A stretch of 64,000 bases of DNA from Microbacterium sp. (GTDB lineage: Bacteria > Actinomycetota > Actinomycetes > Actinomycetales > Microbacteriaceae), in contig JAFKIL010000006.1 of assembly GCA_017306415.1 (NCBI GenBank), positions 149,410 through 213,409 on the forward strand. The letters are read 5' to 3'. Both the position numbers and the translations under genes were made by a program. Position 1 is the first letter of the stretch, and each line of letters opens with the position of its first letter. Under the pieces are notes generated by a model. It did not search any database. It was not told where the DNA came from and was given only the letters and a program-made list of their open reading frames with translations. This document shows, in pieces, positions 5,020 to 62,378 of the stretch.

Positions 5020-5079
5020 CTTCACCTCCCGTCATGCGTGGAGCCCCGACGCAGGGGCGCCGGGGCTCCACGGATCGAA

Positions 5080-9172: not shown

Positions 9173-10245
9173 GACGTTCCTTGCGGAGAACGGACGGCGC
9201 CGGCGCGACGCCAGAGGACGCTCAGCCGGGCGAAGCCCACGGCGATGAGGAGCGCCGCCCCGTTGAAGACCTGACTGACCCAAGCCGGAGTTCCCAGCAA
9301 CGTGAGCCCGCTCACGCTGACGGCGACGAAGAGGATCCCGATGACCGTGCCCAGCACGGACGGGCGGCCGACGTCAATGACGATCGTGCTGAGCAGGACG
9401 GCCGTGAGGGCGGGAAACAGCATGGACATCCCGTTGTCCGAGGTGGCAGCCCCCTGTCGCGCGAGCAGGAGCACCCCCGCGATGCCGGCGATCGTCCCGG
9501 AAGCAGCGAATGCGAGCATCCTCTGTCGTGCGACGCGCGTTCCCGTGAGCTCCGCGGCCACCGGGTTCGCGCCGATGGCGAACAGCCGGCGTCCGAACGG
9601 GGTCTGGGACATCACGTACCAGACGACGAGGGCGACGACCGCAGCCGCGAGGGCGATGACGGGCACACCGACGATGGACTTCGAGCCGAAGTCGGTGAGC
9701 TCGGCGGGGATGCCGCTGGTGATCTGCAGACCTCCGGTGTAGGCGAAGATCGCACCGCCCAGGAGGGTCGCGACGCCCAGCGTCGCGATGAACGCGTTCA
9801 TCTTCAGGTAGGACACGAGCGCCCCGATGACGGTGCCGATCAGCAGGCCGAAGATGATCGCCATGACGACGGCGACGACCAGCGGCAGCCGGAACTGCGA
9901 CAGGGCAGCCGCAGCGACCACCGAGGATGCGGCCGTCAGCGCGCCGACCGAGAAGTCGAAGAACCCGGCGGCCATCGGCAGCAGCAGCGCGAGGGCGACG
10001 ACGAGTCCTACCCCTTGGTTGGCGATGGCGGCTTGGAAGTTCGCGACACTCCAGAACGCGCGACCGGAGGCGGGGAGAAGCGCGAACAGCGCGATGAGAG
10101 CGACGAGCAGAACCAGGAGGCCGTAGCGCTCTGCCCAGGACTCTGCCCGGACCCTGGCGGGAACCTCGCCGCCGCGGTAGTCGCTCCTCGCCCCGGTGGG
10201 GCGGATTCCGGAGGCCGCGGTGCGCGCGTTGCCGGAGTCGCTCAT
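9169..10245 (-). CDS. Ribose-type (RbsC-like) ABC importer permease
   Basis: Integral membrane protein of about 358 residues with roughly eight to ten spans after a hydrophilic N-terminus of about 40 residues. It belongs to the branched-chain/ribose permease family. Typical segments are FFDFSVGALTAASSVV, AFIATLGVATLLGGAIF and GRRLFAIGANPVAAELTG. The ATG at 10245 overlaps the ATPase stop (ATGA). The ORF frame extends further upstream, but that part is antisense coding of the ATPase. Works with the ATPase and lipoprotein encoded upstream. Cargo unknown. Confidence 0.92.
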   Translation of the reverse strand: MSDSGNARTAASGIRPTGARSDYRGGEVPARVRAESWAERYGLLVLLVALIALFALLPASGRAFWSVANFQAAIANQGVGLVVALALLLPMAAGFFDFSVGALTAASSVVAAAALSQFRLPLVVAVVMAIIFGLLIGTVIGALVSYLKMNAFIATLGVATLLGGAIFAYTGGLQITSGIPAELTDFGSKSIVGVPVIALAAAVVALVVWYVMSQTPFGRRLFAIGANPVAAELTGTRVARQRMLAFAASGTIAGIAGVLLLARQGAATSDNGMSMLFPALTAVLLSTIVIDVGRPSVLGTVIGILFVAVSVSGLTLLGTPAWVSQVFNGAALLIAVGFARLSVLWRRAGAVRSPQGTS

Positions 10246-11810
10246 GATGCTGTCGCCTCGCTTTTGTACTGAGTCAGGTAGGACAGGCGGTCCGCGTCGA
10301 GATCGGACGCGTCGCGCTCCTCGGCGACGCGGCCGCCGCGGAGCACGAGGATGCGGTCGCACAGGTGGAGCAATTCGTCGAAGTCGGAGGAGGCGACCAG
10401 GGCAGCGCACCCGGAGCGCACGTGCGCGCGGACGAGGGAGTGAATCTCGGCGCGGGCCACGACGTCGACGCCCTGCGTCGGCTCATCGAGCAGCACCACA
10501 CGCGGCCCGGTGCGCAACCACCTCGCCAGGACGGCCTTCTGCTGGTTACCGCCGGAGAGAGCGCGGATGGGGGCATCCGGACCGGGGGATGCGATTCGGA
10601 AGCGCTCCATCAGGCCGGCCGAGTCCGCACGCTCGGCGCGGCGCCGGAAGAACCCGCCACGCCAGTAGCGCGCGAGCACGACCGTCGAGATGTTCTCCCA
10701 CACCGGCCGATCGAGAAAGAGCCCCTCGCGCTTGCGGTCCTCCGGCACCAACGCGAAGCCTCGCTCGATGGCGTCGGCGGGACCGGGGAGCTCCGCCCGC
10801 GACCCATCGATGAGGATCGCGCCTCCGGTCGGCTTCTGGACGCCGAAGAGCGTCCGCAGCAGGGAGCTGCGTCCTGACCCGCTCAGGCCGGCGAGACCGA
10901 CGATCTCCCCCGCGCGGACGGCGAGGTCGACCTCTCGCAGGGGACCCGTACTCAGCCCCTCGACCCGCAGAAGAGGGTCCGCGAGATCGACGGACGACCG
11001 TCCCCGTGGGGTGACCGAGTCGACAGGGGCGTTGCCGGTCATGAACGAGATCACTTCGCGCTCGTTTAGGGCGGCTGTCGGCTCCGTGGCGACCAGGCGA
11101 CCGTCTCGGAGGACGGAGATGGTGTCGGCGATGTCGAAGACCTCGGGCAGCCGATGGCTGACGTAGAGGATCGTCTGCCCCCCACGCCGGCAGGCACGGA
11201 TCGTCTCCAGAAGCAGGTCGACCTCGGAGGCGGGAAGGCTGGCGGTCGGCTCGTCCAGCACGATGGTCAGGTTCGCTCCGTCACGGGACGTGCCCAGTGC
11301 TCGGGCGATCGCGACCATCGTCTTCTCGCTCGGAGAGAGGACCCCGACCTTTCGTCGGGGATCGACGCGGATGCCGAGCGAGCCGAGCGCAGAGACGGCG
11401 TCTCGTCGCAGCGCGGACCACCGGATGCCGCCGAGCCGGGATCTCGGAAACCCGTTGGCGAGCCCGAAGTTCTCCATCACGGTCAGGTCCTCGACGAGAC
11501 CGAGGTCTTGATGGACGAACCGCAAGCCGGAGTCGTAGGCGATCTGGGGAGCCCAGGCGGACGCATCACGTGCCGTCCCTGCGACCTCGATCCGGCCGCC
11601 TGGGTCGGCGGCGTACACCCCCGCCAGGAGCTTGAGGGTCGTGGACTTGCCCGAGCCGTTCCCGCCGAGGATGGCGTGCACCGTCCCGGCGGCGACCCGC
11701 AGACTCAGGTCGGACAGGACGGTGACACCGTCGAAGGTCTTGCTGACGCCGTCGAGGACGACGGCGGAAGGGCGAGACGCGAACTCGGCCTTCGACGATG
11801 TCACCGTCAC
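10242..11810 (-). CDS. Ribose-type (RbsA-like) tandem-domain ABC ATPase
   Basis: Double ATPase of about 522 residues for the ribose-type importer. The N-terminal domain has Walker A GGNGSGKSTTLKLL, but the usual signature is replaced by VLSPSEKTMVAIARAL. Its Walker B is LTIVLDEPTASL. The C-terminal domain has a Walker A GLSGSGRSSLLRTL (Arg in place of the usual Lys), the signature LSGGNQQKAVLARWL and Walker B RVVLLDEPTQGVD. This degenerate second site is normal for the family. The GTG start at 11810 has GGAGG seven bases upstream, inside the end of the lipoprotein gene. It overlaps the permease gene by an ATGA. Confidence 0.92.
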   Translation of the reverse strand: MTVTSSKAEFASRPSAVVLDGVSKTFDGVTVLSDLSLRVAAGTVHAILGGNGSGKSTTLKLLAGVYAADPGGRIEVAGTARDASAWAPQIAYDSGLRFVHQDLGLVEDLTVMENFGLANGFPRSRLGGIRWSALRRDAVSALGSLGIRVDPRRKVGVLSPSEKTMVAIARALGTSRDGANLTIVLDEPTASLPASEVDLLLETIRACRRGGQTILYVSHRLPEVFDIADTISVLRDGRLVATEPTAALNEREVISFMTGNAPVDSVTPRGRSSVDLADPLLRVEGLSTGPLREVDLAVRAGEIVGLAGLSGSGRSSLLRTLFGVQKPTGGAILIDGSRAELPGPADAIERGFALVPEDRKREGLFLDRPVWENISTVVLARYWRGGFFRRRAERADSAGLMERFRIASPGPDAPIRALSGGNQQKAVLARWLRTGPRVVLLDEPTQGVDVVARAEIHSLVRAHVRSGCAALVASSDFDELLHLCDRILVLRGGRVAEERDASDLDADRLSYLTQYKSEATAS

Positions 11811-48123: not shown

Positions 48124-48870
48124 CCTCAGGAGCTCCGCAAGGACATCGTCGCGGTCGCGAGACGTCGTGAGAGCGGCGTCACTCTCAAACAGGTCGCCAC
48201 TGACTTCGGTATCAGCGAGGCAACGGTGCAGAACTGACTCCGCCGAGCCGATGTCGAGGACGGTAACCGTCCGGGGTGAAACCGCCGCGGACGCGGCTGA
48301 GGCCCGTGAGTTGAAGAAGCGGATCCGGTTGCTCGAGCAGGAGAACGAGGTCCGCCGTCGTGCTGCAGCGTATCTGTCGCAGGCGAACCTTGAGCAGGAG
48401 GTCGAGATCCTCCGGCGCGCGGCGGCGTATCTGTCGCAGGCAACCCTGTCCGGCCCAAAAGGCTCTACCCGCTCGTGAATGAACTCGCCGCCGACGGTGT
48501 CCACGTCGCGGTGACGTGCCGGGCGCTGAAGTTCACGAAGCAGCCCTACTACCGGTGGCTGCAGGATCCTGTCTCGCGGCGGGACAGGGACGACGCGCAC
48601 CTGATCAACGCGGCGATCGACGTGCATGCCGACGATCCCGCGTTCGGGTACCGGTTCATCGCCGACGAGCTCGCCGAGGCTGGGTTTACTGCGTCGGAGA
48701 GGCGGGTGTGGCGGGCGTGTTCGGAGAACGAGATCTTCAGCGCATTCGTCCGCAAAGCGCCGCGGCAAGAGACGTCTTGTCGGTCCTCCCGTGCGCGACG
48801 ATCCCGTCCGGCGCGAGCTCACCGCGGCCGACCCGAACCGGCTCTGGCTCACTGACATCAAGCTCTCATG
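48124..48870 (+). mobile_element. Decayed IS3-family transposase (orfA and orfB remnants)
   Basis: The orfA part reads PQELRKDIVAVARRRESG and TLKQVATDFGISEATVQN, then a TGA at 48235-48237 where a Trp is expected, LRRADVEDGNRPG, another stop and a frame change into RELKKRIRLLEQENEV. The orfB part starts RLYPLVNELAADGVHVAVTC, PYYRWLQ, FGYRFIADELAEAGF, shifts frame near 48755, and continues GKRRLVGPPVRDDPVRREL and NRLWLTDI. The DDE core beyond its first Asp is missing. The remaining 48871-49049 holds no gene that I recognise. Terminal repeats were not found. Confidence 0.85.
48335..48448 (+). repeat. 57-base tandem duplication inside the decayed orfA
   Basis: Two 57-base units (48335-48391 and 48392-48448) encode EQENEVRRRAAAYLSQANL and EQEVEILRRAAAYLSQATL. 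The units have diverged but keep GCGTATCTGTCGCAGG exactly. Intact orfA proteins of this group have the segment once. Confidence 0.75.
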
Positions 48871-49049: not shown

Positions 49050-50177
49050 CTATTGTGTCCCGTTCGGATACCGCGCATCCAGCCAGGCTGCAAGGGTCGA
49101 CTCGAAACGCTCCGGATCGACGTTCGCCTCCCACCCATGCGGGGCCGAGGCCGTTTCGACGAGCGACACCGTTTCATGGTTCGATGCGAACACTTCGGTG
49201 AGATGGAACGGGATCTCGTCGTCGCCCCGCGAATGCAGCACAAGCGTCGGAACTGTGAGCCAAAAGTTCTCGCTCCAGTTGAGCCTCCGGAAGTCGAGCG
49301 GCGAGGACATACCGATCAGACGGCTTGCGACGTCAGACCCCATGGCCCATGACACTACTGGCGCCAAGAAGCTTGGTAGACCAGCCTTCTGGATACCGTG
49401 TTGCACGATTCCAGACCAGTCGGTCGCGGGCGCAATGAGGGCAAGGCGATCGAAGGCTTGCGGGTCGCGGCGAAGCAGTTCGAACGCGAGCCCTGCACCC
49501 ATTGACCAGGCGACAACGTCGATCCCGACCGCGCCATGCGCGCGTGCATAGGCAATCGCGTCCGCGAGATCGGTCCACTCTCTCTGGCCAAGGGCCGACA
49601 ATCCCTCCGAAGGACCATCTCCTGCACCTCGATATGTGATGACGAGCGACGTCAGTCCGGCGCGCTCAACCACTTCGACAGAGCGCAACGCCACCCGCCG
49701 CGAGGTGCGAATCCCCTGGATGTGGATCACCCAGCGAGATGCGGCACTCGCGCCCGGGAAGAGCCACGCCGGAGCCGACGTGCCATCGCGCAGTGGCACA
49801 TCGACGTTCTGCCAGTTGGGGTCTATGTCGGCAGGACCACTCAACGTGTGGCCGGTTAGTTGCGCAATGAATGGCTCCGTCGGAACAGCCGCTGTTGATT
49901 TCACAACCTGTCGGACGACTTTGCGCAAATCCTGGTCGTTCACGGCTCCGACCAGCGCATGCTGCTCAAAGTTCTCGCCAAACCAAAGTCCGTACCGGCC
50001 CACGGCAGTCGTCTGATCGTTCGAGGGGAATTGGACAGACTTCCCCACGCCCCGAGCCTCGAGCGCCTTCCGTCGAGGCTGAGTACTCAGCACGCGCAGA
50101 GCGAGGATTCGAATCAGAATCGCGAGTGGTGCGACCAGGATCGCGACACATCCAAGCGCGACGTACAGATAGATCAC
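49050..50177 (-). CDS. Membrane-anchored alpha/beta hydrolase
   Basis: Protein of 375 residues with one N-terminal membrane span (about 2-28, YLYVALGCVAILVAPLAILI) and an alpha/beta hydrolase domain from about 125. The nucleophile elbow is VVAWSMGAGLAF (Ala-Trp-Ser-Met-Gly, not the standard Gly first). Asp lies in LHSRGDDEIP and His in SAPHGWEAN. The oxyanion/GIR segment is IHIQGIRTSRRV. The domain would face the cytoplasm or outside depending on topology, which the sequence does not fix. GTG 50177 overlaps the upstream membrane-protein gene (GTGA). Last gene of the XRE-ImmA module. Substrate unknown; lipid, peptide or signal ester are all possible. Confidence 0.85.
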   Translation of the reverse strand: MIYLYVALGCVAILVAPLAILIRILALRVLSTQPRRKALEARGVGKSVQFPSNDQTTAVGRYGLWFGENFEQHALVGAVNDQDLRKVVRQVVKSTAAVPTEPFIAQLTGHTLSGPADIDPNWQNVDVPLRDGTSAPAWLFPGASAASRWVIHIQGIRTSRRVALRSVEVVERAGLTSLVITYRGAGDGPSEGLSALGQREWTDLADAIAYARAHGAVGIDVVAWSMGAGLAFELLRRDPQAFDRLALIAPATDWSGIVQHGIQKAGLPSFLAPVVSWAMGSDVASRLIGMSSPLDFRRLNWSENFWLTVPTLVLHSRGDDEIPFHLTEVFASNHETVSLVETASAPHGWEANVDPERFESTLAAWLDARYPNGTQ

Positions 50178-51124
50178 GTCACAACTCCTGCTCCGCTGCA
50201 CATGCGCACGACCGCCGGAGCCTTCATCTGCCGATCCAGCACCTGTGCTGCAGCGCGCAGCAACATCCGCTCCCGCCGTGTGAGCGGTTCACTGTTCGCG
50301 ATGTCGGTCAGGCGAACGGCGAGTCGGTACGTCTCGTGGACGGGGTCCTCACCGGGGATCGGCATCAGCACCATCCCCCTGCTGACGTTCGCGCGCGTCA
50401 GCAGGTTGCTCAGCACCGTGTTCATCGATCTCCGCCCCGCGCGTGCAAGGGAGAACACCGTAATGCCGGCGCAGACCAGCACCACTCCGCCGTAGAACGG
50501 GACCGTGAATAGGCCACCCACGAACTCAACGGCCGGGGTACGACCGTGCCGGAGGACGCGAAGCGTGAGGTACACAATCTCGATCAGGCTTGCGACGAGG
50601 ATCGCCCACGCGCCCACGCGGATGAGAATGTACGGTCGCGGCTGTCGTCCACTGACGCCGATGAGCATGCGTGTCATGATCAGCACGACGCAGCCCATAT
50701 AGATCGACGCGTACGCCCACAGTCCCGGTTGATCGGCTGTCTCCTTGATGAAGTCGGTCGATGTCGGCCGGCGATCGGCTATCAGGATGAACGGCACGGC
50801 GAACGCGGCGATCATCGTCGGGAGCTCCCACAGAGTGCGAGCATTGAAGCTGCTGCCGTCGAGGGTGCGGGCCGCTTCCATGACGAACCAGAACGCGACG
50901 ATGGCAAGAGCATTCTGAACCAGGTTTGCCACGTTGGAGCCGCCGAGCCAACCATCAATGATCGGCAGTGGCACCACCACGCCGACCATGAATATGGCGG
51001 CAAGACCCGTGATTGTGGCGAACCAGGTGAGCCGGCCCGAGGGTCGTCGCACCGCCGACGGCAGACGAATCAACGTCAGCAGCAGCAGAGCGAGGAACGC
51101 AACCGACTCAATGCGAACCAGCAT
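50174..51124 (-). CDS. Multi-span membrane protein, MAB_1171c-like
   Basis: Protein of about 316 residues with about seven membrane spans in the first 230, then a cytoplasmic tail of about 85 residues. The tail (TYRLAVRLTDIANSEPLTRRERMLLRAAAQVL) resembles the conserved C-terminal region of the MAB_1171c family of actinobacterial membrane proteins. Genes of that family are usually found next to an XRE regulator and an ImmA/IrrE protease, exactly as here. The protein's function is unknown; 'transporter' in database names is not supported by experiment that I know. The ATG at 51124 shares a base with the immA stop. Confidence 0.7.
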   Translation of the reverse strand: MLVRIESVAFLALLLLTLIRLPSAVRRPSGRLTWFATITGLAAIFMVGVVVPLPIIDGWLGGSNVANLVQNALAIVAFWFVMEAARTLDGSSFNARTLWELPTMIAAFAVPFILIADRRPTSTDFIKETADQPGLWAYASIYMGCVVLIMTRMLIGVSGRQPRPYILIRVGAWAILVASLIEIVYLTLRVLRHGRTPAVEFVGGLFTVPFYGGVVLVCAGITVFSLARAGRRSMNTVLSNLLTRANVSRGMVLMPIPGEDPVHETYRLAVRLTDIANSEPLTRRERMLLRAAAQVLDRQMKAPAVVRMCSGAGVVT

Positions 51125-51639
51125 CAGCCGAAGACCGCTTCGTCGCGGATATGCCGAGGCCGCAGGACCAGTCGGGACAGCAACTGAGACAGTTTCTCCG
51201 CCTCCGCCTCCATCACCAACCTGCTGTCGCTGAAGTCGAGGTCGACCTCGAAGTCGGGTGTCGCGACTCCACGTGCCAGCACGGTCTGACCAGCCCTCAT
51301 GTGCTCGCTGGCCGGATGCTTTACCGGCAGAGTTGCGCAGCCGGTGTGCTCGAATAGGACGTGCGACAGCTCGTGAAGGACGGTGTGGAATTGGTACCAC
51401 CGAGGGTCGGACTTGCGCACCAGGATTCGCGCCGCGTCCGGGCTGAGCAGGACGAGTCCGGTGACGTTCTCCCAGTCCTTATCGCCGACCGGCTCGATGT
51501 CGATCTGCTTGCCCGTCGCCACCGCGACGTGGCGGACGATGTCAGCCAATCCCACCTCGGCAGGCAAATTCAGCCGGAGGAGTTGCTGCTCGGCGCGCGT
51601 GCGCAGTTCATTCTTGTCCAGCGAAGCGCTGTACGTCAT
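51124..51639 (-). CDS. ImmA/IrrE-type metallopeptidase
   Basis: Zinc protease of 171 residues. The catalytic motif is HTVLHELSHVLFEH (HExxH), with Glu further on in RLVMEAEAEKLSQLLS as third-ligand candidate. In ICEBs1 of Bacillus, ImmA cleaves the XRE repressor ImmR to switch on transfer; IrrE/PprI proteins do the same in DNA damage responses. Here it lies directly downstream of an XRE gene and divergent from a conjugation operon, so the same logic is likely. ATG at 51639; a 90-base gap follows the XRE gene. Confidence 0.9.
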   Translation of the reverse strand: MTYSASLDKNELRTRAEQQLLRLNLPAEVGLADIVRHVAVATGKQIDIEPVGDKDWENVTGLVLLSPDAARILVRKSDPRWYQFHTVLHELSHVLFEHTGCATLPVKHPASEHMRAGQTVLARGVATPDFEVDLDFSDSRLVMEAEAEKLSQLLSRLVLRPRHIRDEAVFG

Positions 51640-51729
51640 GGCAGTCCGTCTTTCGATCGCTCATTTACGAAGCCATCAGCCGGCACGATCAACTGTACGC
51701 GTGTGCGCAGTCAATTGCGAGGTATTGCC

Positions 51730-52404
51730 TTATTGCGCAGAGATTGAACGGAGGGACTGTGCAATTGCGCGGAGCGCCGCGGGTGACACCTCTCCCACGG
51801 CGCGGGCGGACACTGAGTCTGCCCCCGATGCTTTGAGCGCGTCGCGGAACTCGAATCCAGCCTCGGCGGCGTCTTTGGCCTCCTCATCCTCGAGGTCGAG
51901 GAGGTATGCGGAAGAGATGCCCGAGTATCCCGCCACTCCGTCCAGCAGCCTCGAGCGCACGGCGGCATCCGAATCGCCACTCACGAGTAGCCCCCACTCC
52001 TCTTGCTCCAGGGACACTCCCCGCTCGGCCAGGTCCTGGATCAAACCGCTCAGGTCGAACGCAGATCCGTCCGCCCTCGGCGAGCGGGCAATGAGCGTCA
52101 GCCGTCGACCGAGCTCGCGAGGCTCGGTCCCCACTTCTGGTTCGATCCGATTCGCCCCACTGAGCGACGCAGCAACACGCGAGATCTCGTGAGGATGGGT
52201 ACCGAGCGCCCGGGCGAGCTTCTCGATGTCATTCGTATCGAAAGGGGCCGCCCCGCGCATTCGCGCGTAGTAGTAGGTCACCGACATGTCGGAGCGTTCG
52301 ATCAACTGCTGGTTGGTGATACCGGCGCTGTCCCGCAGTTGCGCGATCGCGCGCACGAGATCCATCGACCAGGCACCCGCCTCCCCGAGTGAACGTCTAC
52401 CCAT
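51730..52404 (-). CDS. XRE-family helix-turn-helix regulator
   Basis: Regulator of 224 residues, longer than phage-type repressors. The helix-turn-helix is residues about 15-75: AIAQLRDSAGITNQQLIERSDMSVTYYYARM in pieces, then FDTNDIEKLARALGTHPHEI. The C-terminal 130 residues (VEVGTEPREL to SISAQ) are acidic and helical, a candidate sensor or cleavage region for the ImmA protease encoded next. Start is ATG 52404 or ATG 52365. No close known family for the C-terminus. Confidence 0.88.
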   Translation of the reverse strand: MGRRSLGEAGAWSMDLVRAIAQLRDSAGITNQQLIERSDMSVTYYYARMRGAAPFDTNDIEKLARALGTHPHEISRVAASLSGANRIEPEVGTEPRELGRRLTLIARSPRADGSAFDLSGLIQDLAERGVSLEQEEWGLLVSGDSDAAVRSRLLDGVAGYSGISSAYLLDLEDEEAKDAAEAGFEFRDALKASGADSVSARAVGEVSPAALRAIAQSLRSISAQ

Positions 52405-52534: not shown

Positions 52535-52852
52535 TCAGAACTCTCCGAGCACCTGATTGAGCCGCATGACCATCTCGGTGACCTGGGCGTCGTCGACGCT
52601 ATAGCGGATGCGCTGGCCGCGGACAGCGACATCCCGTGGCGGATCGGCAATGACGAGCCCCGACGCAACGAGGTTCTCGAGCCCGTTCGCGACGGTCATC
52701 TTCGGGATCTGCAGGGCGTCCGCGATCTCCATCCGAGTCTGACCAGGGCTCTTGCGCAGATGGCCGATGATGGCCGCCTGCAGCATGTTTCCGAGAGCCT
52801 TGATCGGATCCTCCGCGTATTCGCTGTTCACGGGGCGGGTGTATCGAGGCAC
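52535..52852 (-). CDS. Small winged-helix regulator (ArsR/MarR-like)
   Basis: Single-domain DNA-binding protein of 105 residues. Core: GNMLQAAIIGHLRKSPGQ, TRMEIADALQIPKMTVANGLENLVASGLV, then the wing RGQRIRYSVDDAQVTEMVMRLNQVL. The sequence has no cysteine or histidine cluster for metal sensing. GTG start at 52852. It is divergent from and closest to the type IV secretion operon, with a GCTTCAC direct repeat in the shared promoter gap, so it probably controls conjugation genes. Confidence 0.85.
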   Translation of the reverse strand: MPRYTRPVNSEYAEDPIKALGNMLQAAIIGHLRKSPGQTRMEIADALQIPKMTVANGLENLVASGLVIADPPRDVAVRGQRIRYSVDDAQVTEMVMRLNQVLGEF

Positions 52853-53788: not shown

Positions 53789-54406
53789 ATGGGCGCCCCG
53801 CTGATGATTGCCGGCACGGTCGCCAAGTCCAAGACCGGCCGCAGGATCATCGCCGGGATTGTCGCCGCCGCTGTCCTCGTGAACCTTCTCCTGTTCACAC
53901 CATTGATCGCGATCCCTTTCGCCGTCGCGGGACAGTCCGTCGCGGCCCCAGCAGACGGGTCGACGCAGAACATCCCGGCTGTGCAGGGCGACTGGCGGTA
54001 CCCCCTCGCCGGCGGGTATACGAAGGGTCGGGGGTACGGCTACAACCCGGTCGTCGGCTGCAGTTACTGCTCGACGTATCACGAGGGCTACGACATGGCG
54101 CAGGGCTGCGGGGCGACGATCTATGCGGCTGGCCCCGGCATCGTGAAGGTCGCTGGCGTCTACCAGGGGTATGGCAACGCGGTGATGATCGACCACGGCG
54201 GCGGCCTGGAAACCCTCTACGGCCATATGCAGTGGGGACCCCTCCGCGTGCATGTCGGCGACCGGACTACTGCTGGCACTCCGTTGGGTGCGGAGGGCAA
54301 CACGGGCAACTCGTTCGGCTGCCACCTGCACTTCGAGGTGCGCGTGGGCGGGCATGCGGTGGATCCGCAACCCTTCATGGTCGCGCGCGGCCTTCCTCTC
54401 ACCTAG
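53789..54406 (+). CDS. M23-family peptidoglycan endopeptidase (LytM-like)
   Basis: Cell-wall hydrolase of 205 residues that opens the peptidoglycan for the secretion channel. One N-terminal span at about 20-45, then the M23 domain. Zinc ligands are in STYHEGYDM (His, Asp) and CHLHFEV (His of HxH), with a catalytic His in LYGHM. The insertion NPVVGCSYCSTY before the first zinc His carries two Cys. Starts one base after the VirB8-like stop. Confidence 0.93.
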   Translation: MGAPLMIAGTVAKSKTGRRIIAGIVAAAVLVNLLLFTPLIAIPFAVAGQSVAAPADGSTQNIPAVQGDWRYPLAGGYTKGRGYGYNPVVGCSYCSTYHEGYDMAQGCGATIYAAGPGIVKVAGVYQGYGNAVMIDHGGGLETLYGHMQWGPLRVHVGDRTTAGTPLGAEGNTGNSFGCHLHFEVRVGGHAVDPQPFMVARGLPLT

Positions 54407-54725: not shown

Positions 54726-56170
54726 TGCACACCATCGCCGCCGTCCTGCTTAGCCTCGCTCTGGGTGCGAGTGCCGCCGTCGCGGCGCCCTCGGCCTCAC
54801 AGGCCGTGGCGTCCATCGAGACAGCATCGAACGTCGTGGGCGGCGCGGTCGTCACCGGTCAGCCGTGGACGAGCCCGGCGTACCCCGTGGTGTGCAGAGA
54901 GACGGACAAACAGATCAGCTGCACGCCCACCGACCCGCTGCAAGTCAAGGCGCAGCAGTGCTTCACGGATGTCGTCTATGCCGGCGGGCGGGCCACCGTG
55001 TGTACGACGTTCGATGGTCATACCAGCGCCATTCAGGCGGCGGGCGGACGACCGCTCCTTGTGCAGTACGGCTGCAGCGTGGGCGACGTGGTGTGTGTGA
55101 CGTTCGAGAACGCGGGCCGGGGAATGGCGTTGGCGGCGACCGGGATGATGTACGTCGTCGCGACGAATACGCGGTTCGACACAAGCACGTTGCTGTGGAC
55201 GGCAGCCGCGAACGAGTGGTCGTTCTGGCAGTGGGCAGTGCTCGTGGTGCTCTTTGCAGCCTTCGTATGGGCGATCTCTGCGGCCGTCGTCTCGGGCGAT
55301 CGAGAACAGTTGGTGGGTGCGATCGTGCGCTGCTTCATTGCCATCCCCGCTGTGCCGATCTCGCTCTGGTTGACCGGCAAGCTACTGAACTCAATCGATC
55401 AGATGACCTGGTACGTGATGAACCGCGGCAGCGAGATGGATCTGTTCGAGACGTTGCAGGGTGTGATGTGGGCGGGTGGGCAGGCGAACTACTTCTTCGC
55501 GTTCCTCATCCACGGGATGCTCATGCTCTCGATGATTCTGCTGATGCTCGTCTTCGCGTTCCGCAACATCGTCCTCGCCGCCCTCATCGCCGTCGGGCCG
55601 GTCGCGTGGATGATCTTCCCGCTTCGCGGTATCGGGCCGCAGTGGGTGGTGCGCTACTTCTCCGCGATCGTTGTCCTCCTCCTCACCGGACCTCTCACGA
55701 TCGGCTTCGTCTCCCTCATCGTCCGCGGACTGTCAGGGGTGAAGACGATCTGGGATCCGCAGTCCTGGCCGCTTCTGCTGGGCCTCGTGCTGGTCGCGTT
55801 CGCCCCGTTCGCGGTGTTCGGGCTGTTCAGCTTCGTCGGCGCGGTTGCCGCCGACGCGATCGGCTCTCGCCTCGGTTCGGGTGCACGGAGCATGTCGACG
55901 GGTGCAGCCCGCTCCGCGATCCGCATCCCCTCTCGCCTCGGCGCGTCTCCCGCGGGAATGGCGGCTAAGCGTGGAGGCGGTGGCAGTACCGGCCCCGCTG
56001 GACGGTCTTCAACGAGCTCGCGCCCGGGTGGGGCGACAAACCCGGCGGGTAAGCCAAGTACGCCAACCAGCTCCAGTGCACAGACATCGACGGCATCGCC
56101 GAACACGCAGCCGAGCTCGGCGAGCACGCCGGCCCCGAAACCGCCCGGGAGCGGTCGGAGCGGATCATGA
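54725..56170 (+). CDS. VirB6/TrbL-like polytopic conjugation protein
   Basis: Protein of 481 residues. It has a cleavable signal peptide (about 1-22), an extracellular Cys-containing region to about 155 (six Cys), and then six or so membrane spans (WQWAVLVVLFAAFVWAISA to VLVAFAPFAVFGLFSFVG). The C-terminal 100 residues are a low-complexity Ser/Pro/Gly/Thr tail. This is the layout of VirB6/TrbL channel proteins and the SCO6881 family of actinobacterial conjugative elements. It overlaps SCO6880 by four bases. Confidence 0.75.
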   Translation: MHTIAAVLLSLALGASAAVAAPSASQAVASIETASNVVGGAVVTGQPWTSPAYPVVCRETDKQISCTPTDPLQVKAQQCFTDVVYAGGRATVCTTFDGHTSAIQAAGGRPLLVQYGCSVGDVVCVTFENAGRGMALAATGMMYVVATNTRFDTSTLLWTAAANEWSFWQWAVLVVLFAAFVWAISAAVVSGDREQLVGAIVRCFIAIPAVPISLWLTGKLLNSIDQMTWYVMNRGSEMDLFETLQGVMWAGGQANYFFAFLIHGMLMLSMILLMLVFAFRNIVLAALIAVGPVAWMIFPLRGIGPQWVVRYFSAIVVLLLTGPLTIGFVSLIVRGLSGVKTIWDPQSWPLLLGLVLVAFAPFAVFGLFSFVGAVAADAIGSRLGSGARSMSTGAARSAIRIPSRLGASPAGMAAKRGGGGSTGPAGRSSTSSRPGGATNPAGKPSTPTSSSAQTSTASPNTQPSSASTPAPKPPGSGRSGS

Positions 56171-57672
56171 CCAGCACGACCTCTCCGTCGACGTCGCCTG
56201 AGCGTCCGGTCCGTCTTACGCGCCGGTCGGGTCAGGGCGTCGTGATGGGGATGGACCCGTGGCAGCTTGGTTTCCTGACCGCCGCAGGGATCATCCTGCT
56301 GATCTCGATCAACCGGTTCGGGCCCGTCGGGCTGCTCTACGGCGTCCCCTTCTATCTGCCGCTCGGCGCCGCGGCGTTCACCACGATCCGTGGGATCTCG
56401 GCCCCGAAGATGGCGGGACTGTGGGTGACCACGCAGGTCCGGCACGCGGCCGGCGCGACCGAGACGCGGTTCCGGCCCGAGCGGATCGCACTGGCTGGCA
56501 CCCTGAACCTCCCCGGAGTGCGCGCGTCGATCCAGCTGTGGGACGTCGACGGGATCGCGTGTGTCTACAACCCGCACGACCGGGCGGTATCCGTGACGGC
56601 GGAGCTCGAGGTGCAGGGGTTCCTCATGCACGACACCCCGGACCGATTCGACCTCGCCCAGCAGTGGGCGACTGTGCTCGCGTCGTTCACCCAGCGGCCG
56701 GGAGTCAAGCGCATCACCCTGCAGGAGCGCACCCTCCCGTCCACCATCCGCGCGGCGCGGGAGCACTACGACACCGTCGTGCGGCAGCGCGACCTCGATG
56801 CGGCGTCGCCCGTGGCGGAGAACTATCGAGAGGTCATGGATGGATCGGAGAGGTATGCCGTCGCGCACCGCAACTACCTCACCTTCACTTTGGACCTGGT
56901 CACGCTTGGCGCCCAGTTGAAGTCGCTCGGGGGTGGGGCGGATGCGGTCAAGACGCTCGCCCATGTGGAGGCACACAACCTCGCTGACGCGCTCCAAGCT
57001 GCCCACATCAAGGTGCGCCTGTGGCTGTCCCCGCGGGACGTCGCTGCGCTCGGCCGCACCGTATTCGACCCGGCGTTCGCCGCCGCAGTCCAGAATCGCG
57101 CCGTCGACCGGGCGGGGGTGGATCCGATCGCGATCGGTCCCATGTATCTCGCGGAGCCGCGCCACGACAACGGGGTCGTGATCACGGACTCCGGTGTGCA
57201 CACGACGATGTGGATCCACGAGTGGCCGCGATCGGATGCGCCGGTGGGTTTCATCAGCCCTGTCGTGTTCGCGCGGATGCCTCAGACGGGGGAGGCGATC
57301 ACACACATCTTCTCACTCGTACTGACCCCAGTACCGGTCTCGAAAGCGCTGCGGCGGATCCGGGATGAGAAGAAGGTGTGGCGGGGCAACGAAAAGCTGC
57401 GCGCGAAGCGCGGCGCCGACGGGTCCGCCGCGGACGCCGCGGACTGGGATGCCCTGGAGAAGCAGGAGGAGGAGATCGTCGCCGGGCATGGCGAGTTCCG
57501 ATACGGCGGCTACCTCACGATCACCGCCGGCGATCGGGAACAGCTTGACCAGGCCGTCGCCGGCATGCGCAACGCCCTCTCCCGGGCCGGCATGGAAGCG
57601 CAGATCCTGTACTGCCAGCAGGCGGAGGCGTTGATGGTGAACGCGTTGCCGATCGGGCTCGGGATGAAGTGA
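56167..57672 (+). CDS. SCO6880-family protein (VirB3-like span plus VirB4 N-terminal-like domain)
   Basis: Protein of 501 residues with two close membrane spans near the N-terminus (about 35-75, LGFLTAAGIILLISINRFGPVG and GVPFYLPLGAAAF), like VirB3/PrgI. A soluble domain follows, resembling the N-terminal part of VirB4/TraC: VYNPHDRAVSVTAELEVQG, then ENYREVM and RNYLTFTLD. There is no Walker A or B. With the next gene it equals a full VirB3-VirB4 protein split in two. Overlap with neighbours on both sides. Confidence 0.8.
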   Translation: MTSTTSPSTSPERPVRLTRRSGQGVVMGMDPWQLGFLTAAGIILLISINRFGPVGLLYGVPFYLPLGAAAFTTIRGISAPKMAGLWVTTQVRHAAGATETRFRPERIALAGTLNLPGVRASIQLWDVDGIACVYNPHDRAVSVTAELEVQGFLMHDTPDRFDLAQQWATVLASFTQRPGVKRITLQERTLPSTIRAAREHYDTVVRQRDLDAASPVAENYREVMDGSERYAVAHRNYLTFTLDLVTLGAQLKSLGGGADAVKTLAHVEAHNLADALQAAHIKVRLWLSPRDVAALGRTVFDPAFAAAVQNRAVDRAGVDPIAIGPMYLAEPRHDNGVVITDSGVHTTMWIHEWPRSDAPVGFISPVVFARMPQTGEAITHIFSLVLTPVPVSKALRRIRDEKKVWRGNEKLRAKRGADGSAADAADWDALEKQEEEIVAGHGEFRYGGYLTITAGDREQLDQAVAGMRNALSRAGMEAQILYCQQAEALMVNALPIGLGMK

Positions 57673-59255
57673 TGGCCAAGCGATCCGTCACCTTCACCCC
57701 GGCCACTACCAGCCGGAAGGACCGCCGCGACCTGCGCCGCCAGATCGCCGCCGCCATCCGGGACGAGAGACCTGCAACCTCCACTCGCTGTGACCGCGCC
57801 CTCCCCGAGGCGGCGGTCCCCGGCCCATTCGGCCCTGGGCTGACACAGGGCGGGTACTGGAATCTGGGGAAGACGTCGGTGCCGCCGCATCAGGCGACCA
57901 GCCAGCACCTCGCCGGAATCTACCCGTTCGTCGCCGACGCCGGCCTCGGCCACCGCGGCCCCATCGTCGGGGTCGATCTGAACGCGGACGCGCTGTGGCA
58001 CTTCTCGCCGTGGGAGGCTTACGGCGACGCCACCGAGCGAGGCACCTTCTCCACCAACATCCTCGTGCTCGGCGCCTACCGATCCGGGAAGTCCGCGACG
58101 GTGAAGACGCTCACGACCCGGTCGATCGCGTTCGGTCACCAGATCGTGGTCCCCTCCGATCCGAAAGGTGAATGGGTCGCGGTCGCTGATGCGATCCCGG
58201 GTGGGCGGGTGATCCGGCTCGGCGCCGGGACCAGCGCACGCCTGAACCCCCTGGACAGGGGGCCGCGACGGTCGGATGCGACGGATGAGCAGCACGAGCA
58301 GATGGTCAAGCAGCGCCGCATCGGCACACTGATCACGATCATCGAGATGACCCTCGGCACGAAGCTGTCGGCGGTGGAGCACGCCGCGCTCCACGACGCT
58401 CTCGACAGCTGCATCGGCGCCACCAATGACCGCCCCACCCTCCGCGGCGTGTACGAACATCTCGGCCTGCTTGCTGGGGGCAAGAGCGGCCGAGACTCCC
58501 GCGTCGCGGAGGGTGCGGTGCAACCCCGGTACGTGCTGCGACGGTTCGTCGACGGCGACCTGTCCGGACTGTTCGAGGACGAATCCACCGTCGCATTCGA
58601 CCAGGACGCCCCCATCGTCGTCACCGACACCTCAGAGTTATTCGCCCGAGGAGAGCTCGCCGCCCAACTCACCCAGGTGTGCTCCACCGCGTGGATCCAA
58701 GCCGTCATCTCCGACCGAGCCGCGCACCGCACCCGGTACGTGGTGCGGGAGGAGGGATGGCGGGACATGACCTCTCTGGCCTCGTTGCAGATGTTCCAGC
58801 AGTGGCTGAAACTGTCCCGCCACTACGGGATCAGCAACATCGTCATCCTGCACAAGATGGGCGACCTCGACGCCGTCGGCGACGAAGGCTCCCTCGAACG
58901 CTCCCTCGCCTACTCGATCGTCGGAGACATCGAGAACAAGTTTGTCTTCCGGGTCAACCACCAGGAGCAGCACGCCCTGCAAACCCGACTCAACATGCCC
59001 GCCCCGCATGTCGAGATGGCGAGGCAGCTGCGCAAGGGCGAGTTCGTCGCATACGTGGGGCAGTTCGCTTATTTGGTGGATTGCTTCGCCACGTCAACGG
59101 GGTGGGAATACGAACTGTTCAACACCGACGATGCGCTCACCATGACCGACAACGACGGCACCCTGCAGATGCCCGAGCCCGACACGCTCGATGATCTCTG
59201 GCCCACCGCCGACCCCGCCGCCCTCGACGGGTGGCTCTCCCCAAAGGAGTTCTGA
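57672..59255 (+). CDS. VirB4/TraC-like conjugation ATPase (catalytic half)
   Basis: Soluble ATPase of 527 residues. Walker A is VLGAYRSGKSATVKTL; the Walker B region reads RYVVREEGWRDM, with Arg where VirB4 proteins usually have Asp (LLVLDEAW). The Glu-Gly-Trp-Arg part corresponds to the EAW segment. Downstream conserved pieces are QQWLKLSRHYGISNIVILHKMGDL and LRKGEFVAYVGQ. ATG 57672 shares one base with the SCO6880 stop; GTG 57669 is also possible. It powers pilus-like channel assembly and substrate transfer. Confidence 0.85.
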   Translation: MAKRSVTFTPATTSRKDRRDLRRQIAAAIRDERPATSTRCDRALPEAAVPGPFGPGLTQGGYWNLGKTSVPPHQATSQHLAGIYPFVADAGLGHRGPIVGVDLNADALWHFSPWEAYGDATERGTFSTNILVLGAYRSGKSATVKTLTTRSIAFGHQIVVPSDPKGEWVAVADAIPGGRVIRLGAGTSARLNPLDRGPRRSDATDEQHEQMVKQRRIGTLITIIEMTLGTKLSAVEHAALHDALDSCIGATNDRPTLRGVYEHLGLLAGGKSGRDSRVAEGAVQPRYVLRRFVDGDLSGLFEDESTVAFDQDAPIVVTDTSELFARGELAAQLTQVCSTAWIQAVISDRAAHRTRYVVREEGWRDMTSLASLQMFQQWLKLSRHYGISNIVILHKMGDLDAVGDEGSLERSLAYSIVGDIENKFVFRVNHQEQHALQTRLNMPAPHVEMARQLRKGEFVAYVGQFAYLVDCFATSTGWEYELFNTDDALTMTDNDGTLQMPEPDTLDDLWPTADPAALDGWLSPKEF

Positions 59256-59261
59256 ACCCCA

Positions 59262-60569
59262 ATGTCTACCGCACGCGCATACGCCACCGTCACCGGTCCG
59301 ACCGCCACCTTCGTCGCCCCCGACGGACACACCGAACCCATCCATGCCGCCGGCCACGACGATATCCGCGTCGCTGTCGTCCGCCGCGCCGCCGACGAAG
59401 CCCGCCGCGCCGGAGTACCCCTCGAACTGGTCACCTCCGGTGACCGCGGTCAGCACCACCTTCTCGTTCATACGGACGGCTCCATCACCAGCCTCGACAC
59501 CACACCCGACCCCGATCCCGCGGCGGTCGACGACCAGCTCGCTGAACTCCTGGGACCCGAACTCGAAGGGCCAATCGCGACACTCCGCTCCGACAGTCGT
59601 GATGTTCCGGCGCAGACTGCCGAAGACACAGACTCCGGGATTTTGGAACCGCCGAAGCGCCGGACGTCGTTCATCGCCGAGCCGCAGGTCGCGCCCACAC
59701 CGACCAGCGGGATGCGTGTCCTCCTCGCCTCTGTCGGCATCAACGTGAAGCCGTCGGCGGCGGACCTGCGGCGGGAACAGGACACAGCCGTCGTGTCGCG
59801 CCAGTGGGCCGGATGCCGCACCATCGCGGTCGTAAACGGGAAAGGCGGGTCCGGGAAGACGATGACCACCGCCATGCTCGCCGCCGTCTACGCCCGAAAC
59901 GGCGGCGGCAACGTGCTGGCCTGGGACAACAACGACACCCGCGGCACCCTCGGCTGGCGCACCGAACCCGGCCTGTACGACACCACCATCCGCGACCTGC
60001 TCCCCGCCGCCGATGATCTCCTCGCCCCCGGCGCATGGGTGTCCCACATCTCCCGGTACGTGCACCACCAAGACGCAGACCGGTACGACGTGCTCCGCTC
60101 CAACCCCGAAATGCTCGCCACAGAGCAGCGGCTCAGTGCCGCGGAGTTCGACATGCTCATGCAGGTCGCCGCCCGCTACTACCGGCTCGTGATCTTCGAC
60201 TCCGGCAACGACGAATCCGCCGACCGGTGGATCCGGATGATCGACGACTCCTACCGACTCGTCCTCCCCACCCTGAAAGCCAACGAGTCCGCCGAGACCG
60301 CCGCTCTCCTCCTGGAAGAACTCCGCCGGCGGGACGAACGCTCCGCCGCCCTCGCCGACAACGCCGTGGTGGTCGTCAGCCAGTACGAGCCCGGCAGCCT
60401 CGCCGCGGAGCGGCGCATCGCGGATGGGTTCCGCGACCTCGTCCGGGACGTGCAGATCGTTCCCTTCGACCCGGCCCTGAAGTCCGGCCCGTTGCGGTTC
60501 GACACTCTCCGCCCTCGCACCCAGGACGCGTGGCTCCGGATCGCCTCCGTCACCGCGGAAAGCCTCTAG
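59262..60569 (+). CDS. ParA/MinD-like ATPase of the conjugation operon
   Basis: Protein of 435 residues. The first 170 are a divergent, Pro/Ala-rich region; the ATPase begins CRTIAVVNGKGGSGKTMTTAMLA, a deviant Walker A with the signature Lys of ParA/MinD. Switch and B motifs are WDNNDTRGTLGW and LVIFDSGND. Seven bases after the VirB4-like gene. Similar proteins occur in actinobacterial conjugation clusters; placement of the machine or DNA partition are both possible. Confidence 0.82.
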   Translation: MSTARAYATVTGPTATFVAPDGHTEPIHAAGHDDIRVAVVRRAADEARRAGVPLELVTSGDRGQHHLLVHTDGSITSLDTTPDPDPAAVDDQLAELLGPELEGPIATLRSDSRDVPAQTAEDTDSGILEPPKRRTSFIAEPQVAPTPTSGMRVLLASVGINVKPSAADLRREQDTAVVSRQWAGCRTIAVVNGKGGSGKTMTTAMLAAVYARNGGGNVLAWDNNDTRGTLGWRTEPGLYDTTIRDLLPAADDLLAPGAWVSHISRYVHHQDADRYDVLRSNPEMLATEQRLSAAEFDMLMQVAARYYRLVIFDSGNDESADRWIRMIDDSYRLVLPTLKANESAETAALLLEELRRRDERSAALADNAVVVVSQYEPGSLAAERRIADGFRDLVRDVQIVPFDPALKSGPLRFDTLRPRTQDAWLRIASVTAESL

Positions 60570-60578
60570 GGAACAGCC

Positions 60579-62378
60579 ATGCGCGAGGGCACGGCAGGCA
60601 AGGCGATCGCGATCCTGATCGCGGCCGCGGTGGTGCTCTCACTGCTGTTCGGACTCGTCGCGCAATCCATCACGCTGGTCGCCTGCGGCACCGGGCTGAC
60701 ACCACGCAACCTTTTCTCCGGACTCTGGCTCGCTGCCACCGGCGACCCGGCGGCCTACTTCACCACCTCAGGCTGCGAGCTGCCAATCACCCCCATCCGG
60801 ATCCTCGATGTGGTCGCCATCCTCCTCATTGCCGCCGTGGTCGTCTGGGGCATGAGGGTATGGCTGCGGTACCGGCAATCGGATCGGTCATTCATCGCCG
60901 ACTTGCGTAAGCGGCCGGGATTCGCTCCGGCCTCGGAGATCCGCCAGCACCTCTCCGGTGCCGCGGTGCTGCGGCGTGCCCGACAGCTGAGGCCTGACAT
61001 CGCCAAGCCGCGACCGACCGATGTCGGGTGGCGAGTCGGCCGTTCCCGCGCAGTGGACGTGTTCGTGTCGATTGAGGACTCCGTCGCCCTCGAAGGGCCA
61101 CCCCGCTCCGGCAAGGGCTACCGGGTGCTGATCTCCGCGATCCTGGACTGGTCCGGCCCGCTCATCACGACCTCGACGACGAACGACAACCTCACCGCGA
61201 CGATGCGGATGCGGCAGCACCGCGGCGACGTGCACGTCTTCGATCCGCAAGGGCTGTCCGGCGTCCGCCACCCGCTCCGTGTCTCCCCGATCGCTGGCTG
61301 CGAGGACCCGCTCGTCGCGATGCAGCGTGGAACCGCGATCATCACCGGCACCGCCCTCGGCACATCCTCCACCAATGGCGAGTGGGCGCAAGCATCCGGG
61401 GTCGTCCTCGGGCGGCTCCTGCACGCGGCTGCCGTGGGTGGTCGGTCGATCGCGGAGCTCTATAAGTGGGGAACCAGCCCCGCCCAAGCCCGCGACGCCG
61501 TCGACATCCTCCGCATGGACGGTGCGCCCGGCTGGGGTGACAACCTCGAAGCCACCATCGCCGGTGACGACAAGCTCGTCTCCTCCATCTGGTTCGGCGT
61601 CCAAGGAGCCGTCGCACCCCTCGCCGTTCCGCAGATCCGCGAGTCGCTCATGCCCGGCGCCGACGACCGCGTCTTCAACCCGCACGCCTTCCTCGACGCT
61701 CCCAACACGCTCTACCTGATCGGCTCCTCCTCCGGTGCAGCGGCGATGGGTGGATGGCTCGGCGCGTTGCTGGACGACATCGTCGAGGTCGCTCGGAACC
61801 GGGCGCTCGCCTCCCCCGGTTCGCGTCTCGCGCATCCGCTCGGTCTGATCCTTGATGAGATCGCCAACATGTTCCGGTGGGGCAACCTGCCCCGAATCAT
61901 GGCCGACGGCGGCGGCCGCGGAATCTGCACCTTCGTCGTCCTCCAAGCCCTCTCCCAGGCCGAGACTTCCTGGTCTCGCGCCGAGGCCGACACGATCTGG
62001 GCCGCCGCGACCGCCAAAGTCTTACTCGGCGGTGCGTCCCACGTCGACCACCTCCGCGACATCGAGACCCTACTCGGCACCCGCGAGACCCGCCGCACCC
62101 AACGGTCCTGGTCCACCCGCGACCCAGGTCACTCCACCAGCGAGCAGCACGAACGCCGCCCGCTGATGTCGGTGGACGAGATCCGGCGGATGCCGCAGAA
62201 CCTCGGGCTGCTCGCCTACCGCAACCGTCGCGGCGTTCTCCTCGACCTTGCAGGGTGGGATGAACGTCGCGACGCCCGCGACATCGCCACCGGCAAACGC
62301 GACACCGAACGCGAACAACAAGACGTCTTCACTGCCCGCACGAGACCCACACGGTACGAGGAGGTGGACGAGGCATGA
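60579..62378 (+). CDS. VirD4/TraG-like coupling protein
   Basis: Membrane ATPase of 599 residues that brings the DNA-relaxase complex to the channel. Two N-terminal spans (about 8-30 and 65-85) with an extracellular loop, then a P-loop domain. Walker A is EGPPRSGKGYRVLI and Walker B LGLILDEIANM. Motif GRGICTFVVLQALSQAETSW corresponds to the conserved segment III of TraG/VirD4 (QSLSQ). A TraM-recognition-like C-terminus follows. It overlaps the HNH gene by four bases. Confidence 0.92.
   Translation: MREGTAGKAIAILIAAAVVLSLLFGLVAQSITLVACGTGLTPRNLFSGLWLAATGDPAAYFTTSGCELPITPIRILDVVAILLIAAVVVWGMRVWLRYRQSDRSFIADLRKRPGFAPASEIRQHLSGAAVLRRARQLRPDIAKPRPTDVGWRVGRSRAVDVFVSIEDSVALEGPPRSGKGYRVLISAILDWSGPLITTSTTNDNLTATMRMRQHRGDVHVFDPQGLSGVRHPLRVSPIAGCEDPLVAMQRGTAIITGTALGTSSTNGEWAQASGVVLGRLLHAAAVGGRSIAELYKWGTSPAQARDAVDILRMDGAPGWGDNLEATIAGDDKLVSSIWFGVQGAVAPLAVPQIRESLMPGADDRVFNPHAFLDAPNTLYLIGSSSGAAAMGGWLGALLDDIVEVARNRALASPGSRLAHPLGLILDEIANMFRWGNLPRIMADGGGRGICTFVVLQALSQAETSWSRAEADTIWAAATAKVLLGGASHVDHLRDIETLLGTRETRRTQRSWSTRDPGHSTSEQHERRPLMSVDEIRRMPQNLGLLAYRNRRGVLLDLAGWDERRDARDIATGKRDTEREQQDVFTARTRPTRYEEVDEA

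What the first reader, a model, noticed from the sequence alone, without database searches (positions are those of the whole stretch)
49050..52404. Four-gene XRE - ImmA - seven-span membrane protein - anchored hydrolase module in a conjugative element
The genes overlap (immA-membrane protein-hydrolase) and lie divergent from a type IV secretion operon. XRE plus ImmA recalls the ICEBs1 switch, and the MAB_1171c-like partner is a recurring actinobacterial neighbour of unknown role. The hydrolase with an unusual AWSMG elbow adds an enzymatic output. It could be a membrane-signal-controlled transfer switch, an immunity/exclusion device or a defence system. This is my best candidate for an undescribed system.
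Basis: partly seen in the sequence, partly recalled or inferred. Interest (0 to 1): 0.75.

Follow-up and report, generated by a model that had tools for sequence, protein, structure and literature searches.

The report
Membrane-sensor protease switch with swappable enzyme
Four neighbouring genes on a bacterial conjugative element form a recurring set - a DNA-binding regulator, a protease that may cut it, a seven-span membrane protein that may be a sensor, and an exchangeable lipid-type enzyme - which turns up across actinobacteria and has no tested function.

Summary
Selecting only on the hydrolase, 67 of 79 loci kept from named genomes carry all four genes, 74 the membrane protein. The four genes co-vary (matrix r 0.88-0.95), far less so with replication or partition genes (0.14-0.41). 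Independent queries with the membrane-protein family and with the protease find the same triad elsewhere in actinobacteria. Two points change the reading. The 'XRE' protein carries an EspR-type domain, and in one genus EspR itself lies beside the protease/membrane-protein pair in 29 of 30 loci. The enzyme slot is exchangeable: in 24 of 25 fetched plasmid loci (one has a broken membrane-protein gene) it holds an alpha/beta hydrolase in 15, a PAP2 phosphatase in 8, something else in 1. Some copies lie among chromosomal-type genes, so it is not simply a transfer device. Best reading: a membrane-gated ImmA-type protease controls an EspR-type regulator, with an enzyme that makes or removes the cue. 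Cleavage, ligand and targets are untested. Library searches found no description of the triad. New variant of the regulator/ImmA kind.

The parts
51730..52404 (-). Regulator: N-terminal XRE-type HTH (about residues 16-75) and C-terminal EspR-type domain (about residues 98-224)
   Evidence: Pfam HTH_31 4.5e-9, HTH_3 2.1e-7; profile of the EspR-like partner proteins of other plasmids hits it at 9.7e-18 in a set of a few dozen proteins; that protein group, as alignment A6, hits solved EspR structures at 1e-13. The regulator alone finds no EspR structure, and a profile of EspR-proper proteins hits 6 of 10 relatives but not this one.
51124..51639 (-). ImmA/IrrE (M78)-like zinc metallopeptidase, HExxH...E...E
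50174..51124 (-). Seven-span membrane protein, MAB_1171c-related, predicted N-out/C-in with an about 90-residue cytoplasmic tail
   Evidence: Hydropathy and positive-inside; AlphaFold2 model pLDDT 91.2, pTM 0.87; relation to MAB_1171c_fam
49050..50177 (-). Alpha/beta hydrolase tethered by an N-terminal membrane helix, predicted cytoplasmic; Ser225-Asp319-His347
   Evidence: S 93/93, D 92/93, H 92/93 aligned proteins; more positive charge after than before the helix in 73 of 78 relatives; model pLDDT 94.8; nearest folds Pf2001 esterase and a mycobacterial monoglyceride lipase
52535..52852 (-). Winged-HTH regulator between module and T4SS operon (accessory; a relative lies beside the module in several Arthrobacter-type plasmids)
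   Evidence: MarR_2 2.6e-6; profile hits somewhere in 13 of 79 genome loci and beside the module in L134-L137
53053..62378 (+). Type IV secretion operon running away from the module: M23 peptidase 53789-54406, SCO6880 family 56167-57672, VirB4-like 57669-59255, ParA/CbiA-type ATPase 59262-60569, TraG/VirD4 60579-62378
48475..48855 (+). Transposase-type fragment (HTH_21; IS3-type by recall) bordering the module on the hydrolase side
   Evidence: PF13276 6.4e-8

Best explanation
The cassette is a membrane-to-DNA signalling switch. The seven-span protein senses a cue at the membrane and gates the ImmA-like protease; the protease cleaves or inactivates the EspR-type regulator; loss of the regulator changes expression of the cassette and probably of neighbouring plasmid genes. 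The membrane-tethered hydrolase (elsewhere a PAP2 phosphatase) acts on a lipid-like molecule and makes, removes or tunes the cue. Shown: the gene set, its co-inheritance, conserved catalytic residues, exchangeable enzyme, EspR relation. Predicted: topology. Inferred: cleavage of the regulator (by analogy with ImmA/ImmR, CapP/CapH and PprI/DdrO), sensing by the seven-span protein, the enzyme's role, and control of transfer in this element.
For: Conserved set: of 79 hydrolase-selected loci 67 have all four genes, 74 the membrane protein, 72 ImmA, 67 the regulator; from a MAB_1171c query, ImmA in 16 of 18 wider stretches; from an ImmA query, membrane protein in 27, regulator in 24, both in 22 of 30 loci, own genome included. 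Co-inheritance r 0.88-0.95 against 0.14-0.41 for Rep/ParA. Protease residues 89 of 89. Regulator carries an EspR-type domain; EspR itself beside the pair in 29 of 30 loci of one genus. Enzyme slot: alpha/beta hydrolase in 15, PAP2 in 8, other in 1 of 24 plasmid loci. Membrane-protein residues D57, F112 (invariant) and G61, N64, F125 (nearly so) lie in or beside predicted outer loops; L68 and F168, also nearly invariant, do not. ImmA cleavage of ImmR: passages of PMC6540685 and PMC10233336.
Against: No cleavage site, ligand or target promoter is shown. No significant shared motif. Resemblance of the membrane protein to receptors is weak (best Foldseek E 0.055, TM below 0.5). Of 79 loci, 5 have the hydrolase alone (one on a 3.4-kb contig), 5 have no regulator hit, 2 near contig ends lack ImmA and regulator; the host's second hydrolase (28% identical) stands alone. 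Profiles of EspR proper and of MAB_1171c-group members do not hit the window's own regulator and membrane protein. Two more distant PAP2-like neighbours have no Pfam hit, and one lacks the SGH histidine.
Confidence: 0.5

Rival explanations
1. Envelope-lipid homeostasis cassette: the enzyme remodels a membrane lipid, and regulator, protease and membrane protein only adjust its level to membrane state; no dedicated signal and no link to transfer.
For: Enzyme is esterase/lipase-like or PAP2-like; copies among chromosomal-type genes, in Curtobacterium L067 beside GHMP kinase and HMG-CoA synthase; the MAB_1171c mutant of M. abscessus had about half the biofilm and lower listed clarithromycin and cefoxitin MICs (passages of PMC8707978).
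Against: In the wider family the neighbours of the membrane protein also include amidase, amidohydrolase and FAD enzymes, which need not act on lipids; whether these belong to the set is not shown.
Confidence: 0.22
2. Dedicated transfer switch of conjugative plasmids (ICEBs1-like): regulator represses the T4SS, protease lifts it on a recipient cue.
For: On many of the plasmids read it lies between T4SS and rep/par genes; divergent from the T4SS here; rep, ParA or SCO6880 homologues within the stretch in 32 of 79 loci.
Against: Copies among chromosomal-type genes; the Leifsonia copy lies near a T2SS/Tad-like operon; no shared motif; a separate winged-HTH gene sits at the T4SS start.
Confidence: 0.15
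3. Anti-phage defence system with the enzyme as effector.
For: Weak capH/capP similarity of regulator and protease (E 0.002); an exchangeable enzyme resembles effector swapping.
Against: No PADLOC match beyond weak component similarities for the triad and hydrolase. Defence-gene surroundings were not checked systematically; one Shedu gene was seen near a copy (L010).
Confidence: 0.06
4. Entry or surface exclusion device.
For: Membrane protein next to a T4SS operon.
Against: Also present among chromosomal-type genes without T4SS in the stretch.
Confidence: 0.04
5. Toxin-antitoxin pair (XRE antitoxin, COG2856 toxin).
For: COG2856-Xre pairs were listed as putative TA (passages of PMC2701414).
Against: All 72 loci with ImmA also have the membrane protein; ImmA of S. 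mutans had only a minor effect on growth of E. coli (passages of PMC10233336).
Confidence: 0.03

Closest known systems
ImmR/ImmA switch of ICEBs1 and TnSmu1 (also CapH/CapP, DdrO/PprI)
   Same: HTH regulator next to an M78-type metallopeptidase, on a conjugative element
   Different: Regulator has an EspR-type domain; the known inputs (RapI/PhrI, RecA, ssDNA) have no counterpart seen here, and a seven-span membrane-protein gene overlaps the protease gene; an enzyme gene follows
MAB_1171c family putative transporter (NCBIfam NF042915)
   Same: Homologous membrane protein over most of its length by profile comparison, also beside an ImmA-like gene
   Different: The window protein itself is below detection by the family model; 'transporter' is a name, not a tested function as far as I saw
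EspR (nucleoid-associated regulator, solved structures 3qf3 and others)
   Same: C-terminal half of the regulator is related; in one genus EspR itself neighbours the same kind of protease and membrane protein
   Different: Window protein has an additional N-terminal XRE HTH
Actinobacterial XRE-DUF397 pairs and conservon (cvn) systems
   Same: Recurring actinobacterial regulatory gene sets (recalled; XRE-DUF397 also in passages)
   Different: No DUF397 hit among the module proteins in the Pfam scan; otherwise not tested

Membership tests
ImmR/ImmA-type switch | Regulator with HTH next to an HExxH metallopeptidase | tested here: met
ImmR/ImmA-type switch | Protease cleaves the regulator | not testable with these tools
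   needs an assay
ImmR/ImmA-type switch | Regulator represses transfer genes | tested here: inconclusive
   no shared upstream motif beyond shuffles; binding not tested
MAB_1171c family (NF042915) | Score above the family cut-off | tested here: not met
   P0001 no match up to E 1; no place in the own genome over the cut-off
MAB_1171c family (NF042915) | Homology by profile comparison | tested here: met
   6 of 16 proteins of A2 match; hhalign probability 98%, 292 columns
EspR family | EspR-type HTH plus C-terminal helical domain | tested here: met
   Indirect: EspR-like profile on window regulator 9.7e-18 and regulator-group versus EspR-group hhalign probability 98.6%, 129 columns; A6 to solved EspR 1e-13. 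Direct hits of the window protein: none
M78/IrrE peptidase | HExxH with downstream Glu | tested here: met
   89 of 89
Known anti-phage systems | Match to a PADLOC system | tested here: not met
   Only weak component similarities

The most novel reading that the evidence does not exclude
A pan-actinobacterial receptor-protease-regulator pathway: a seven-helix membrane receptor for a hydrophobic signal gates an ImmA protease that removes an EspR-family regulator, with an exchangeable enzyme (hydrolase, PAP2, others) that writes or erases the signal. Plasmids have captured it to read host or neighbour membranes, and in about half the species of one genus EspR itself answers to the same pair.
Probability: 0.3. 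Interest if true: 0.85.

Novelty: new variant of a known kind. Interest (0 to 1): 0.62.

Why it matters
How EspR-type regulators are switched, what MAB_1171c proteins do, and how actinobacterial conjugative plasmids are controlled are, to my knowledge, open questions. The recurring linkage of all three gives one concrete, testable circuit, and the exchangeable enzyme points to a small lipid-like molecule as its input.

Tried and rejected
Rejected: unusual nucleophile elbow; module restricted to this element; phage origin (17 pattern matches, no relative). A motif shared between regulator, ImmA and T4SS upstream regions: the best 16-mer match was reached by 18 of 200 shuffles, the other eight comparisons by 78-198 of 200. 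Structure search of the membrane protein gave only weak GPCR-like matches. Single window proteins against solved structures gave nothing useful; of the profiles, EspR-like and hydrolase gave clear hits, ImmA one weak hit (E 0.00015), the membrane protein none. Literature, seen as listings unless said: MAB_1171c 1 paper (passages), DUF6545 0, EspR with ImmA 0; searches gave no paper on the triad by title or abstract; passages read in PMC2701414, PMC10233336, PMC6540685. Close relatives of the membrane protein are rare in whole genomes: 3 of 149 of the order, own included.

Dropped rows: of 208 hydrolase relatives the tool kept the best 80 (79 loci); of 32 listed MAB_1171c places 18 stretches were re-fetched, covering 21 places; the 11 others are mostly the weaker ones. 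Of 25 fetched plasmid loci L018 was left out of the slot count (membrane-protein gene broken by an IS). 15 Clavibacter records of 46 plasmid hits were listed but not fetched because some are virulence plasmids of a crop pathogen. L144 and L155 had no ImmA; L155 scores weakly and may be another family.
Full report
What is there. The window carries, on the minus strand, regulator (52404-51730), ImmA-like peptidase (51639-51124), seven-span membrane protein (51124-50174) and alpha/beta hydrolase (50177-49050), the last three overlapping by 1 and 4 bases. A winged-HTH gene (52852-52535) and then a plus-strand T4SS operon follow. The other side is a transposase-type fragment, then a dehydrogenase and sugar-transport-type genes. 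The contig ends at the window's right end, so the element's rep, relaxase and far border were not seen.

Each protein. Regulator: XRE HTH in front, EspR-type domain behind. The second part rests on profiles: EspR-like partner proteins of other plasmids hit it at 9.7e-18 and 8 of 10 regulators in all; the regulator group and the EspR group align with probability 98.6% over 129 columns; but a profile of EspR-proper proteins hits 6 of 10 regulators, not this one, and the protein alone finds no EspR structure, while the partner group does (1e-13). Peptidase: HExxH plus two glutamates in 89 of 89, M78 hits in 8 of 17. Membrane protein: seven hydrophobic segments, N-out/C-in by positive-inside, model pLDDT 91, related to the MAB_1171c group; fold search finds only weak GPCR-like matches. 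Hydrolase: N-terminal membrane helix with the domain predicted cytoplasmic, S225, D319, H347 in 93, 92 and 92 of 93 (the Leifsonia product of L006, frame-shifted near its end, lacks the last part), nearest to esterases and monoglyceride lipases.

Is it more than chance. tblastn finds the membrane protein in 46 and the hydrolase in 53 plasmid records. A scan of named genomes with the hydrolase alignment alone gave 208 relatives, 79 loci kept: 67 have all four genes, 74 the membrane protein, 72 the peptidase, 67 the regulator; 5 have the hydrolase alone (one on a 3.4-kb contig), 5 lack only a regulator hit, 2 near contig ends have hydrolase and membrane protein only. With starts chosen by script, ImmA and membrane-protein genes lie within -10 to +30 nt in 70 of 70; membrane protein and hydrolase do so in 43 of 54 codirectional cases, one overlaps by 19, and 10 have gaps of 419-552 nt, in which the ten class-C loci carry the EspR-like gene; 15 convergent cases lie -17 to +5 nt apart. 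Gene order and strand therefore change while the set stays. Distance matrices agree within the set (r 0.88-0.95, n 55-62) and much less with Rep (0.28-0.41, n 22-24) or ParA (0.14-0.15, n 27), though these too exceed permutation (p 0.001-0.023); part of the within-set value reflects deep classes, and Rep and ParA alignments are looser.

Beyond this hydrolase. Searching 296 genomes of the phylum with the MAB_1171c model gave 21 with a match. In 18 re-fetched stretches of 8-13 kb an ImmA-like gene is present in 16 and an EspR- or XRE-type hit somewhere in 10. Searching 296 genomes of the class with the ImmA alignment gave 75 with a match; of 30 loci returned (own genome included) 27 have the membrane protein, 24 the regulator, 22 both. 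In the genus of G220, whose EspR matches solved EspR end to end (E 1e-67; M. tuberculosis as its source is recalled), 40 of 78 genomes have the membrane protein and 77 of 78 EspR. In the 30 loci fetched EspR is adjacent in 29 (in L174 only a 42-residue piece) and ImmA in 30; the remaining one, L175, has an EspR end piece at its contig edge (G502). The core is thus regulator + ImmA + membrane protein, and the enzyme is a variable fourth member.

The enzyme slot. Of 25 fetched plasmid loci, 24 have a membrane-protein gene: an alpha/beta hydrolase goes with it in 15 (L006-L017, L019, L022, L136; L010's membrane protein is unannotated, found), a PAP2-type phosphatase in 8 (L020, L021, L134, L135, L137, L187, L188, L190), and in L189 an oxygenase annotated MpaB is next. 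Pfam scores for PAP2 in L020 and L021 (2.4e-5, 4.9e-5) lie just under the gathering score; SGH and SRxxLxxH motifs are kept in the 8 aligned proteins of plasmids and L002, while of two more distant ones L142 and L146 keep only the second. Next to MAB_1171c members proper, home-made gene calls and Pfam show alpha/beta hydrolases, FAD enzymes, an amidase and an amidohydrolase; whether those belong is not shown.

How it probably works. ImmA cleaves ImmR in ICEBs1 on input from RapI/PhrI or RecA (PMC6540685, passages); CapP/CapH and the Deinococcus pair are parallels (PMC10233336, passages). Here no such input gene is seen, and a membrane-protein gene overlaps that of the protease. I infer that the membrane protein gates the protease and that the regulator is the substrate. 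Most of the conserved membrane-protein residues lie near the outer face, and the choice of enzymes suggests a hydrophobic cue. A Microbacterium copy (L066) lies among LacI, amylase and mannitol-dehydrogenase genes and a Curtobacterium copy (L067) among mevalonate-type and glutamate-synthase genes, with similar neighbours conserved in other loci: the output is not transfer as such. On plasmids the position between T4SS and rep/par suggests that element genes are among the targets, but no shared motif was found.

Known or new. COG2856-Xre pairs are known, and the authors of PMC2701414 set aside Xre-membrane-protein pairs in their toxin-antitoxin survey (passages). The single paper naming MAB_1171c reports about half the biofilm and lower MICs for two of three drugs in the mutant (PMC8707978, passages). 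Searches for DUF6545, and for EspR together with ImmA, found nothing. The library lacks most subscription journals, so this is weak evidence of absence. I file it as a new variant of the regulator/ImmA kind, not as a member of the ICEBs1 switch, since cleavage and transfer control are untested.

Noticed in passing
L006 (Leifsonia plasmid) 1-5158: Here the module is near and divergent from genes annotated T2SS F and T2SS/T4P/T4SS ATPases (Tad-like by recall), not from an SCO6880-type T4SS.
   Followed up: no
L067 624-4277: Curtobacterium module, without a regulator hit, lies beside GHMP kinase and HMG-CoA synthase genes.
   Followed up: partly
L154, L156-L186: EspR gene converges on an ImmA/membrane-protein pair in one genus; 40 of 78 genomes have the membrane protein, a few copies with stops.
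   Followed up: yes
G493:C125 39032-39872, G490:C94 15513-16362: EspR paralogues (37-40% identical) in that genus also lie next to ImmA-like genes.
   Followed up: no
L018 (pTC1) 9723-10870: An IS element lies where the membrane-protein gene is expected; only fragments match.
   Followed up: partly
L191 6413-7645: The host's second, 28% identical hydrolase stands without the other module genes within 14 kb.
   Followed up: yes
L011 5598-6500, L016 1866-2774; L068 and L085 similar: Regulator variant with a MarR-type domain in front (for L011); its C-terminal part aligns with the EspR-type region by eye but is not hit by the EspR-like profile.
   Followed up: partly
window 48475-48855: Transposase-type fragment beside the hydrolase; the rep/par genes usual there on plasmids were not seen.
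   Followed up: no
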